From Microcaldota archaeon (lineage in GTDB: Archaea; Micrarchaeota; Micrarchaeia; Anstonellales; Bilamarchaeaceae): a stretch of DNA of 34,033 nt. Location: the NCBI GenBank assembly GCA_030613375.1, contig JAUWMC010000008.1, forward strand, positions 1 through 34,033, written 5' to 3'. Position numbers and translations under genes: made by a program. Below, one piece after another: positions 107-29,197 of this stretch (its first letter is position 1; each line of letters opens with the position of its first letter). Below the pieces are notes generated by a model. It did no database searches. It was not told the DNA's origin and worked only from the letters and a program-made list of their open reading frames with translations.

Positions 107-124
107 CCCCTCTAAAGTGAGGGG
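107..124 (-). repeat. Right-end hairpin of the tnpB element
   Basis: CCCCTC (107-112) pairs with GAGGGG (119-124) around a 6-nt loop, overlapping the tnpB stop codon. Such hairpins at the 3' end of tnpB are typical of IS200/IS605 right ends. In active TnpBs this area forms the omega-RNA scaffold, with the guide just beyond it (here towards base 1). The exact element boundary cannot be fixed from one copy. Confidence 0.6.
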
Positions 125-1239
125 TATCCACACGGTTGGATTTTTGAAGGTTGTGGTGTCGTACAAACAATTTTCACTGCACCACTTTGGAGCGGAGTCA
201 TTGTCGCTCTGTTCTTGAACATATAGTCCAGGAACCTATGGCCAATATTTATTGCGCCATTGATATCTGCATTGTATTCTAATCCACAGTTTTTGCATTT
301 GAAGAGCCCTTTTTTCCTTGTTCCTTTGCACTTGCACCTGTGGCAGGTTTTGGAAGTGTTTCTCTCGCCTATTAAGGCTACAGGTATCCCTGCACTAATG
401 GCCTTGTATGTAATGAATTGCTGGAGTCTGTAGAAAGGCCACTGGTTGATTATTCGCCTCATTTTCCTTCCTTTCTTTTGTGCTGCTTTTCGTATATGTT
501 TAAGGTCGCCTAACAAGATTACTGGGCGTTTTCCTGTCTTTTTGAGGTTTTGTGCATGGGTTACCAGATCTTTGCTTATTTTGTGCAATACTGCATTTAC
601 TGCCCTTTGCTCTTTTTGTGCAATTTGCTTTATCTTTTTCAGGAGTTTTTTCTTTCCCAGTGCTGTTCTCAACCTTCTGTGGTGAGCTCTTATTTTTCTC
701 AGGGTTTTTCCTCCGTGGAAAATTGGGTTCATTAAAGTGTGGTGCAGAGTCACGGAAACTGCAGGGTTCCTCTCGCCTAAGTCCACGGATATTGGAATGG
801 AATTTTTGTGTATTGTTGATTTGTTTTTCTTCTTTCTGCAGGTTAGGTGCAGAAAGAAGTCTTTTCCCTGTTTTGTTATTTTGGAATCTCCGAATGAATC
901 AGAATTGCACATTATGGGTGTGTGATAACCGGTTACGTGAAGAGGTGCAAGTATCCCTCCACGAACTCCATAAATTGGGATTTTGAAGAAATATTTGTAT
1001 CTTTTGTTTTTTGTTTTTAGGAGTTTGAATACGTCGTTTCTTAGTGATAGGGGATAGGGTTTGTTTTTCTTTATTCTGTTCTTTTTGTAGTATCTTGTTG
1101 TGTGCTGAAGCGTTGCTGAGTAGAGTGGTGCTTTTTCCCCTCTTAAGTTTCTGTTGAAGTTTTCTATTTCTGTTTCTAAGAGTTTTCTTTTCTTTGAGGT
1201 TAGTTGGCCCAACTTTATTTTTATTGTTTTTATGCGCAT
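112..1239 (-). CDS. tnpB: TnpB-family RNA-guided nuclease (solitary IS200/IS605 OrfB)
   Basis: Family role: TnpB is an RNA-guided DNA endonuclease carried by IS200/IS605 elements. It has a RuvC fold and a C-terminal zinc ribbon. Seen here: RuvC-I Asp153 in SVDLGER, RuvC-III Asp325 in YNADINGAINI, and zinc cysteines C299/C302 and C315/C318. The usual RuvC-II Glu is Gly (LLGDL, G244). A Glu sits 48 residues later at E292, in GERNTSKTC just before the zinc ribbon, a layout reported for Fanzor-like TnpBs. No tnpA is present, so it is a solitary IS1341-type element. The start is supported by a minus-strand TATA box (1261-1270) about 26 nt upstream. The length of 375 aa is normal for the family. 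It could be active through the relocated Glu, or nuclease-dead. Confidence 0.93.
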   Translation of the reverse strand: MRIKTIKIKLGQLTSKKRKLLETEIENFNRNLRGEKAPLYSATLQHTTRYYKKNRIKKNKPYPLSLRNDVFKLLKTKNKRYKYFFKIPIYGVRGGILAPLHVTGYHTPIMCNSDSFGDSKITKQGKDFFLHLTCRKKKNKSTIHKNSIPISVDLGERNPAVSVTLHHTLMNPIFHGGKTLRKIRAHHRRLRTALGKKKLLKKIKQIAQKEQRAVNAVLHKISKDLVTHAQNLKKTGKRPVILLGDLKHIRKAAQKKGRKMRRIINQWPFYRLQQFITYKAISAGIPVALIGERNTSKTCHRCKCKGTRKKGLFKCKNCGLEYNADINGAINIGHRFLDYMFKNRATMTPLQSGAVKIVCTTPQPSKIQPCGYPSL

Positions 1240-15609: not shown

Positions 15610-15717
15610 AGAATCCACCCGGATAGGTTATTCTGTGGAAATATTTATGAAGGAAGAGGATTTACTTCAGTGATGGGTGCTCAAAATAGGAAGCCACCGT
15701 GGCGGAAGTGTGCCCCC

Positions 15718-15755
15718 TAATTTAGGTGACTACAAATAGGTTGTATGTAGTCACC
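15718..15755. repeat. 3'-side repeat block of the Fic gene
   Basis: It contains TAATTTAGGTGACTACA (15718-15734), a perfect copy of 16700-16716, and an inverted partner TGTAGTCACC (15746-15755). Together they form a perfect 10-bp inverted repeat with an 11-nt spacer that covers the Fic stop codon. It could be a terminator, a regulator site or one end of a mobile cassette. Confidence 0.75.
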
Positions 15756-16695
15756 CAGTTTTCTTTAGAGACTTCTTCAATCTTTTATACTCTTTGAGCA
15801 TGAGTTCAATTGTAGGACGGAGATCATGCCCAGTATGGTACGCCTGGAGAGAAGCATAATACTCCATCCGGTTTTCCAGTTCAATATTGACCGGAGGTAT
15901 GCCATGCTTAATTAAGATATTGTTTAACAGCAGGCGCCCTACTCTTCCGTTCCCATCTTCAAAGGGATGGATGTTCTCAAATTGGTTATGGACTATTGCA
16001 GCCAAGACCAAAGGAGGATAAAACTTCCTGTTTTCTTCATACCATTCAACCAACTCCTTCAGAAGCGAAATAACTTGGGAAGAGGGCGCACCCCTGTGAA
16101 TTATATTTCCGAACCTGTCGGATATCACCACTTCCCTTCCCCTGCGCCTAAGTTTTCCTCCGAAAGACTTTGAGTTCTCGAACACTATTCTGTGCAGTTC
16201 CTTGATTAAGTCCAAGGAGAGGTGATCTTTTGTTTTTCTTATGTATTTGACTGCTTTGGCAACCCCATATGTTTCTGAGATCTCTCCCTTTGCTTTGTCA
16301 GGCCACTTGTCTTTTTCTAGAATATTTACTACTTCTTTTTCAGTTACAGTAGATCCCTCTATTGCATTGGTATCATAGGTAAATGCTTCAGTAAATTTCA
16401 ACCAGTCTTTTTCGCTTAGGTGGGAAAGTTTTATGTTGCCCGACGCGCCTAGTTTTTTAAGCTCGTTGAGTTCCTTCGGGGAAAGAATAGTGTGGTAGGG
16501 GTCCCGGACAACCTTGAGCGCTTTTATCTGCTCTTGGATTTCTTTTTCTGCCTTTTTCCGCTTCTTTTCAAGCTCTGTTTTGGAGAGGTTTGCTCCGAGG
16601 TACATACGGAGTTTTTTAACCTTCTTTTTTTGTCTGTAGGAGTGGGAAAGGTAGTATTTTTTCTTTCCTTTTTCTGTCCTAATTTCTATGTGCAT
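15751..16695 (-). CDS. Fic-domain protein adenylyltransferase (class II type)
   Basis: 314 aa. The Fic active motif HPFEDGNGR spans residues 243-251 with catalytic His243, followed by VGRLL. An inhibitory-helix motif TNAIEG (109-114, pattern S/TxxxEG) lies N-terminal, as in self-inhibited class II Fic proteins. The N-terminal ~60 residues are strongly basic with a coiled-coil look and may bind nucleic acid. Fic enzymes transfer AMP (or other groups) to Ser, Thr or Tyr hydroxyls, and the target here is unknown. TATA box TTTATAAAA (about 16718-16728) lies 25-30 nt above the ATG, between two copies of TGTAGTCAC. No antitoxin gene is adjacent. Confidence 0.94.
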   Translation of the reverse strand: MHIEIRTEKGKKKYYLSHSYRQKKKVKKLRMYLGANLSKTELEKKRKKAEKEIQEQIKALKVVRDPYHTILSPKELNELKKLGASGNIKLSHLSEKDWLKFTEAFTYDTNAIEGSTVTEKEVVNILEKDKWPDKAKGEISETYGVAKAVKYIRKTKDHLSLDLIKELHRIVFENSKSFGGKLRRRGREVVISDRFGNIIHRGAPSSQVISLLKELVEWYEENRKFYPPLVLAAIVHNQFENIHPFEDGNGRVGRLLLNNILIKHGIPPVNIELENRMEYYASLQAYHTGHDLRPTIELMLKEYKRLKKSLKKTG

Positions 16696-16699
16696 GGAT

Positions 16700-16748
16700 T
16701 AATTTAGGTGACTACATTTTATAAATGTTTTGTAGGAATGTGACTACA
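16700..16748 (-). promoter_or_regulatory. Fic promoter with two TGTAGTCAC sites around the TATA box
   Basis: On the minus strand the order is TGTAGTCAC (16740-16748), then TTTATAAAA, then TGTAGTCACCTAAATTA (16700-16716), then ATG. The two sites are 32 bp apart, about three helical turns, on either side of the TATA box, as expected for a repressor. The longer site is repeated exactly at the 3' end of the gene. Confidence 0.6.
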
Positions 16749-16784
16749 CATCGGATAGTGGAAAGGTAGACTTATCCGATATTG

Positions 16785-16800
16785 TGTAACCATGGTTACA
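16785..16800. promoter_or_regulatory. 16-bp palindrome TGTAACCATGGTTACA, copy 1
   Basis: This is a perfect 16-bp palindrome. The same 16 bases occur at 29130-29145 between two divergent promoters, so it is probably a binding site for a dimeric regulator. Here it lies about 60 bp upstream of the Fic TATA box. Confidence 0.6.
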
Positions 16801-16811
16801 TAAACCGAAAT

Positions 16812-16847
16812 AATATCTCAAAATGGTTTTTCTTTGGGTGAACCGAA
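16812..16847. repeat. 36-nt intergenic motif, copy B
   Basis: 33 of 36 bases match copy A at 2044-2079, in the same orientation. As in copy A, a hairpin-forming sequence follows directly, though with different bases. It lies in the gene-free stretch above Fic. Confidence 0.6.
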
Positions 16848-17019
16848 AAGGTTGGAGTAAAACGAGGGCTTTTTGGCTACTGTTTTTGGCGACGGAGTAA
16901 ACCAGCAGAACAAAAACGGTGTCAGAGCTCCAGTTTCTCATCACCGCAGAATTCCCGAAAGAAAACGCTCAGGTAAAACGAGCTCATCATCAGGCATTAC
17001 GCCCATATCAACTTATGCA

Positions 17020-29077: not shown

Positions 29078-29129
29078 AGAGTGGAATTGCGATAATCTGG
29101 TTTTTAAGAGTTGGGACAGATCAATTCTA

Positions 29130-29145
29130 TGTAACCATGGTTACA
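29130..29145. promoter_or_regulatory. 16-bp palindrome TGTAACCATGGTTACA, copy 2
   Basis: A perfect palindrome identical to 16785-16800. It lies between the divergent GT2 and ferredoxin promoters, about 25 bp from one TATA box and 12 bp from the other (TACTTAAAAACT, 29157-29168), a good place for a regulator of both. Confidence 0.65.
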
Positions 29146-29197
29146 CAAACGGGCAATACTTAAAAACTCAAAGCAGATATGGGACCAGGAGATTAAG

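What the first reader, a model, noticed from the sequence alone, without database searches (positions are those of the whole stretch)
15718..16748. Fic gene bracketed by four copies of one 9-mer and a 17-bp direct repeat
GTGACTACA occurs at 15726-15734, 16708-16716 and 16740-16748, and inverted at 15746-15754. All copies lie within about 55 bp of the gene ends. A 17-bp copy (TAATTTAGGTGACTACA) is exact on both sides, 982 bp apart. In the promoter, two sites flank the TATA box. The pattern suits a self-regulated unit with the basic N-terminus of Fic as possible DNA binder, or a mobile cassette with direct repeats.
Basis: partly seen in the sequence, partly recalled or inferred. Interest (0 to 1): 0.65.

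Follow-up and report, generated by a model that had tools for sequence, protein, structure and literature searches.

The report
Self-regulated archaeal Fic gene with operators
An archaeal protein-modifying (Fic) gene carries matching short DNA sites around its promoter and at its end that look like docking sites for the Fic protein itself, and about 170 relatives show the same arrangement with a different site sequence for each Fic subtype, which would be a new, directly testable way for such enzymes to control themselves.

Summary
The four 9-mers and the 17-bp repeat are real and not chance: only two other GTGACTACA copies exist in the 1.16-Mb genome. Of 31 members of this Fic subfamily, 29 have the two direct sites 30-33 bp apart around the TATA box and 28 the inverted pair 20-22 bp apart at the stop codon. 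Across 167 Fic promoters, mostly of the same archaeal class, 75% have a strong repeat pair (shuffles 6.5%, neighbouring genes 8%). The motif differs by N-terminal subtype: Fic paralogues inside one genome have unrelated motifs, same-subtype genes in different genomes share one. 3' sites co-vary with promoter sites. No partner gene is conserved. The N-terminus is predicted to be a three-stranded sheet plus helix; a transposase carrying it also has TATA-flanking repeats. Best reading: Fic is its own operator-binding repressor, as shown for Yersinia CccR, but with an N-terminal beta domain instead of a C-terminal HTH, and with extra operators at the gene end. The mobile-cassette reading is mostly rejected: two gene-less loci keep all four sites, and a sibling's possible empty junction has no 17-mer. 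Operator pairs also persist without their Fic genes. Binding itself is not shown.

The parts
15751..16695 (-). Fic gene, 314 aa: N-terminal beta3-alpha domain (residues 1-58), class II inhibitory motif TNAIEGS (109-115), Fic motif HPFEDGNGR (243-251)
   Evidence: ORF; Pfam Fic E 5.1e-21; alignment A1; AlphaFold model, mean pLDDT 86.6
16522..16695 (-). coding part of the N-terminal domain, proposed DNA-binding domain (three strands 2-8, 11-22, 25-35, helix 39-58)
   Evidence: weak fold match to the arm-type DNA-binding domain of HPI integrase (3jtz, prob 0.66, E 0.2); same domain on transposases
16740..16748 (-). promoter site P1 (TGTAGTCAC, read with the gene), 32 bp upstream of P2
   Evidence: conserved 30-33 bp spacing in the subfamily
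16718..16725 (-). TATA-like box TTTATAAA, about 30 bp before the ATG, so the transcript is probably leaderless
   Evidence: similar box, average offset -29, in 30 of 31 subfamily members
16700..16716 (-). promoter site P2, extended form TGTAGTCACCTAAATTA (one 17-mer copy), directly after the TATA box
15746..15754 (.). 3' site T1 (GTGACTACA read with the gene), contains the TGA stop codon
   Evidence: same place in most subfamily members
15718..15734 (-). 3' site T2 (TGTAGTCACCTAAATTA), inverted partner of T1 about 20 bp away; the other 17-mer copy
16750..16780 (.). orphan operator-like pair of a different Fic class: ATCGGATA-N15-TATCCGAT
   Evidence: 22 places in 15 of 83 genomes, spacer always 15, reversed control 0; no Fic of that class found in this genome
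15709..15720 (+). orphan half-site TGTGCCCCCTAA, the promoter motif of the MAYIEKK-type Fics
15690..16804 (.). stretch absent from the comparable place in sibling genome G001, where ATTATTCCGG joins CACTCATCACTAAAG directly
   Evidence: one comparison, inside a dispersed genus repeat

Best explanation
The locus is a solitary, self-regulated class II Fic (AMPylation-type) gene. Its N-terminal beta-sheet domain is proposed to bind TGTAGTCAC sites. Two direct sites, three helical turns apart, sit on either side of the TATA box, so a bound Fic dimer or oligomer would block TBP/TFB or RNA polymerase and keep the gene off (negative feedback). The same protein would also bind the inverted pair at the stop codon; I infer that this blocks read-through or antisense transcription, or lets the two ends loop together. 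SHOWN here: sites, layout, conservation, motif-by-subtype pattern, 5'/3' co-variation, absence of a partner gene. INFERRED: that Fic itself is the binder, that binding represses, the role of the 3' pair, and what Fic modifies.
For: Locus-specific 9-mer. Same plan in the subfamily: 29 of 31 with the promoter pair at spacing 30-33, 28 of 31 with the 3' pair at offset 20-22, TATA at about -29. 167 promoters: repeat score >=9 in 75% vs 6.5% of shuffles and 7.9% of 177 neighbouring promoters. Motif similarity follows Fic identity (N-term identity >=0.6: mean 16.2; <0.4: 6.3), while paralogues in one genome sit at background (6.5), which argues against one shared regulator. Partial Mantel for the N-term given the catalytic part 0.24, 0 of 300 permutations; N-terminal columns predict motif similarity better than catalytic ones, p 0.0005. 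Promoter and 3' sites of one gene co-vary, 0 of 5000 permutations reach it. The commonest neighbour family occurs in 10 of 170 loci and is itself another Fic. Beta3-alpha model. The same domain on a DUF4277-type transposase comes with TTGTAGTGTCAA twice around its TATA box, apart from the element's ends; an IS630-like protein shows a weaker pair. Precedent: CccR autorepresses through AGATAATCAT-N26-ATGATAATCT (PMC9755527).
Against: No binding or expression data. The fold match to a DNA-binding domain is weak, and no Pfam family matches the domain. The catalytic domain correlates with the motif at least as well as the N-term in the partial Mantel (0.37 vs 0.24), so sequence alone does not say which domain reads DNA. 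Permutations do not remove phylogeny. Fic classes without this domain also have TATA-flanking repeats (14 of 24 at score >=9): one carries an HTH_17-like stretch, but for the 430-440 aa class no DNA-binding domain was recognised. Sites persist without the gene, which simple autoregulation does not need.
Confidence: 0.75

Rival explanations
1. The sites are operators, but a separate trans-acting repressor (an antitoxin-like or other transcription factor encoded elsewhere) binds them; Fic is only the regulated gene.
For: Binding by Fic is not shown; the site layout would look the same; Fic/Doc toxins are often paired with a partner antitoxin (PMC2701414).
Against: No conserved neighbour; paralogues in one genome have unrelated motifs, so each would need its own factor; motif follows Fic subtype across genomes; the same domain on a transposase has a similar promoter.
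Confidence: 0.15
2. The repeats are ends of a mobile cassette (direct or inverted repeats used by a recombinase) that carries Fic as cargo.
For: Sites at both gene ends; a stretch of about 1.1 kb is missing at the comparable place of a sibling; four-site loci without a gene; Fic genes often sit near other Fic genes or their sites; the domain is shared with transposases.
Against: Promoter sites keep a fixed distance to TATA and ATG; loci L269 and L272 lack the gene but keep all four sites; the sibling junction has no 17-mer or duplication; in the G019 element the domain's sites are at the promoter, not the terminal repeats; no recombinase gene next to the Fic.
Confidence: 0.08
3. The 3' pair works as an RNA hairpin (terminator or stability element), and the promoter copies are a separate matter.
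For: The window's pair folds well as RNA (-18.1 kcal/mol, z -4.9).
Against: Half-sites of one pair often differ so that the stem is broken (L002, L131, L191), yet each half still matches the promoter variants; 5'/3' co-variation is unexplained by RNA, since the promoter sites would not be transcribed in a leaderless gene.
Confidence: 0.05

Closest known systems
CccR of Yersinia pseudotuberculosis (Fic + C-terminal HTH; PMC9755527)
   Same: One-gene class II Fic with a DNA-binding domain; footprinted repeat pair (arms 36 bp apart start to start) near -35/-10; represses its own promoter as a dimer.
   Different: CccR uses a C-terminal HTH, is a secreted effector, and has an inverted pair; the window gene has an N-terminal beta-sheet domain, direct promoter sites and an additional 3' inverted pair.
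CbFic2 of Coxiella burnetii and SoFic (C-terminal winged helix; PMC10628234)
   Same: Class II Fic with a DNA-binding or putative DNA-binding domain; in CbFic2 DNA binding changes the balance of AMPylation and deAMPylation.
   Different: Different domain and position; no specific operator known for CbFic2; DNA binding of SoFic is stated as undemonstrated in that paper.
Phd-Doc and other Fic/Doc toxin-antitoxin operons
   Same: Autoregulated Fido-fold genes with operator repeats.
   Different: Two-gene operons in which the antitoxin binds DNA; here no partner gene is conserved.
Arm-type / AP2-like DNA-binding domain of integrases (e.g. 3jtz)
   Same: Three-stranded antiparallel sheet followed by a helix; best Foldseek match.
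   Different: Match is weak (E 0.2, prob 0.66, TM 0.46/0.39); no detectable sequence homology.

Membership tests
Fic (Fido) enzyme, class II | HPFx(D/E)GN(G/K)R motif and Pfam Fic domain | tested here: met
   HPFEDGNGR; PF02661 E 5.1e-21
Fic (Fido) enzyme, class II | N-terminal inhibitory motif (S/T)xxxE(G/N) before the Fic domain | tested here: met
   TNAIEGS, E113 and G114 invariant in 21 sequences
Fic (Fido) enzyme, class II | AMPylation or deAMPylation activity | not testable with these tools
   needs an enzyme assay
Autoregulatory Fic of the CccR kind | repeat pair across the promoter core of its own gene | tested here: met
   P1 and P2 around the TATA box, conserved
Autoregulatory Fic of the CccR kind | C-terminal HTH DNA-binding domain | tested here: not met
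   Pfam finds only Fic, at residues 159-261; the rest of the C-terminus is two or three helices ending at residue 314 in the model
Autoregulatory Fic of the CccR kind | direct binding and repression shown | not testable with these tools
   needs EMSA, footprint, reporter
Two-gene toxin-antitoxin operon | conserved adjacent antitoxin gene | tested here: not met
   commonest neighbour family in 10 of 170 loci, itself a Fic (ORFs of 60 aa or more)
Mobile cassette / transposon | terminal repeats at the element ends with full/empty sites | tested here: inconclusive
   one possible empty junction without repeat or duplication; gene-less loci keep all sites
Arm-type (AP2-like) DNA-binding domain | beta3-alpha fold with significant structural match | tested here: inconclusive
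   topology agrees, match not significant

The most novel reading that the evidence does not exclude
Operator pairs are kept in genomes that have lost, or do not have, the matching Fic gene, because they protect: DNA-bound Fic would be held in an inactive or reversing state, so genomic sites act as built-in antidotes or decoys against Fic proteins that arrive from elsewhere. In this reading the gene-end pair and the orphan pairs are part of the control of the enzyme, not only of its transcription.
Probability: 0.07. Interest if true: 0.85.

Novelty: new variant of a known kind. Interest (0 to 1): 0.6.

Why it matters
It would make solitary Fic enzymes of small archaea a large natural set of one-gene feedback circuits, each with its own DNA address written next to the gene (about 170 protein/site pairs collected here). 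The protein-DNA code could be read out by simple binding tests. It would name a job for a common N-terminal domain that Pfam does not recognise and that is shared with transposases, and it gives a way to ask whether DNA binding also switches the enzyme.

Tried and rejected
(2) Pfam and PDB sequence searches with the N-terminal domain: nothing meaningful. (3) Mantel test as proof that the N-term alone sets the motif: not decisive, the catalytic domain correlates too. (4) Fics without this N-term as a 'no repeats' negative control: failed, they have their own TATA-flanking repeats; this widened the rule and weakened the link to this one domain. (5) 17-mer as target-site duplication or recombination site: not supported. 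(6) Relatives of the two domain-bearing transposases: multiple copies only in G019; few or none elsewhere in the order. (7) RNA hairpin for the 3' pair: folds well in the window but broken in some relatives. (8) Papers on archaeal Fic autoregulation: none found in the open library; the idea that HTH domains fused to Fic may regulate fic is in PMC2686095.

Full report
OBSERVATION. The Fic gene runs on the minus strand, 16695 down to 15751. Read with the gene, the order is P1 (>, -53), TATA (about -30), P2 (>, -21), ATG ... TGA inside T1 (<), then T2 (>) about 20 bp on. GTGACTACA is not common: 6 copies in 1,155,921 bases, 4 of them here, against 6 for the reversed control pattern.

SAME SUBFAMILY. 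Homologues at 66-70% identity in the same genus, another genus and another family keep the layout. In 31 members found, P1-P2 spacing is 30-33 bp (29 scored), the inverted pair is offset by 20-22 bp in the 28 that have it, and a TATA-like box starts on average 29 bp before the ATG, suggesting leaderless mRNA. Variant sites appear at both ends of the same gene: TGTAGCCCCC in L184, L191 and L228, TGTGGTCACC in L182 and L188, TAGTCATA in L165 and L199. L002 even has the G variant in P1 and T1 and the A variant in P2 and T2. Own-promoter/own-3' similarity exceeds all 5000 permutations (not corrected for relatedness).

ALL SUBFAMILIES. I collected 170 distinct full-length Fic genes with this N-terminus, mostly from the class of the window genome (301 genomes searched); named archaeal relatives are chiefly Woesearchaeota and Nanoarchaeota-like records. 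In the 167 with enough upstream sequence, promoters carry a repeat pair, direct or inverted, usually across the TATA box: score >=9 in 75%, against 6.5% of dinucleotide shuffles and 7.9% of 177 neighbouring promoters (those are less AT-rich, 55% vs 68%). Motifs go with the N-terminal type, for example MHIEIR: TGTAGTCACC; MAYIEKK: TGTGCCCCCTAA; MPIKKR: GTGGGTATAAC; MARIIKRK: AGTGATAAC; MVxIKKK: TACCCTTACAT/ATGTAAGGGTA; MSFIEKQ: TGTAGACAT; MAFIRRR: TGTAGTGG. In one genome (G008) four Fics have four unrelated motifs. The own promoter motif recurs near the own stop codon in 23.5% of genes versus 2.0% of mismatched controls.

WHO BINDS. No partner gene is conserved. The N-terminus is predicted with good confidence as a three-stranded sheet plus helix, topologically like arm-type integrase domains, but the structural match is weak. 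The same domain occurs without Fic: on an IS630-like protein (L301), on a DUF4277-type transposase of a multicopy element in G019 (L302; the DUF4277 match is below Pfam's cut-off), and as a 45-residue protein ahead of an IS1182-like transposase (L300; family named from memory). L302 has TTGTAGTGTCAA twice, 44 bp apart, around its TATA box, while its element ends look different (AACCTAACTTACGCAAATT, read from the copies). L301 has a weaker inverted pair (score 7); the best repeat found for L300 is AT-rich and uninformative. This natural domain swap favours the N-term as the reader of the sites but rests on one strong case. Fics of other architecture also have TATA-flanking repeats: a roughly 305-aa class with a C-terminal HTH_17-like stretch (E 7e-5, below Pfam's cut-off) uses ATCGGATA-N15-TATCCGAT, seen with N16 upstream of two bacterial Fics. 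So promoter operators seem general for these Fics, and the DNA reader differs by class.

GENE-LESS SITES. GTGACTACA-N9..13-TGTAGTCAC occurs at 21 places in 19 of 301 genomes, control 0. L269 and L272 have all four sites in order and spacing but only about 20-30 bp where the gene should be; L277 and L305 keep only a Fic-like tail before the pair. ATCGGATA-N15-TATCCGAT occurs at 22 places in 15 of 83 genomes, always with a 15-bp spacer; seven of the loci examined have no Fic nearby, and one of these (L341) keeps only what looks like the last Fic codons. The window has such an orphan pair at 16750-16780, touching P1. Loss of genes with retained sites is the simplest reading; selection on the sites is the novel one. 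Incompleteness of these draft genomes is a caveat.

MOBILITY. In sibling G001 the place upstream of the same deaminase lacks 15690-16804 and joins the flanks of a dispersed genus repeat directly, without a 17-mer. This shows variable presence, not a mechanism.

KNOWN SYSTEMS. CccR is an experimentally shown Fic autorepressor with a C-terminal HTH and an AGATAATCAT-N26-ATGATAATCT operator (PMC9755527); CbFic2 changes activity on DNA (PMC10628234); regulation of fic by fused HTH domains was suggested in 2009 (PMC2686095). The window gene works like CccR by this evidence but is not a member of its architecture.

VERDICT. Real, conserved and informative; a new variant of a known kind. I put operator function at about 0.9 and Fic itself as binder at about 0.75.

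Noticed in passing
window 16750-16780; L339, L341, L344, L346, L347, L348, L350: ATCGGATA-N15-TATCCGAT, promoter operator of a different (305-aa, HTH) Fic class, occurs as orphan pairs; G015 has such a pair (L346) although no Fic match was found in that genome.
   Followed up: partly
L269 1501-1596; L272 1439-1528: Two loci keep the complete four-site arrangement but have no Fic gene between the promoter and 3' sites.
   Followed up: partly
window 16786-16803 and 29128-29150: A 16-bp perfect palindrome, TGTAACCATGGTTACA, occurs twice in the window, once next to the Fic promoter; it may be another operator or dispersed element.
   Followed up: no
window 16805-17003 and 2040-2079: A dispersed intergenic repeat of this genus (32 matches over 6 genomes) flanks the Fic locus.
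   Followed up: partly
L302, L308-L311 (G019): Multicopy insertion element whose transposase carries the Fic-type N-terminal domain; several copies appear internally deleted.
   Followed up: partly
L300 1001-1138: A 45-residue stand-alone protein of the same domain is encoded directly ahead of an IS1182-like transposase.
   Followed up: no
window 112-1239: TnpB/Cas12f1-like protein (PF07282, E 9e-22) on the minus strand, possibly an IS605-type remnant.
   Followed up: no
L239, L262, L278, L008: GTGACTACA-type sites lie just behind Fic genes whose own promoters use a different motif, as if a Fic of another subtype had stood there.
   Followed up: partly
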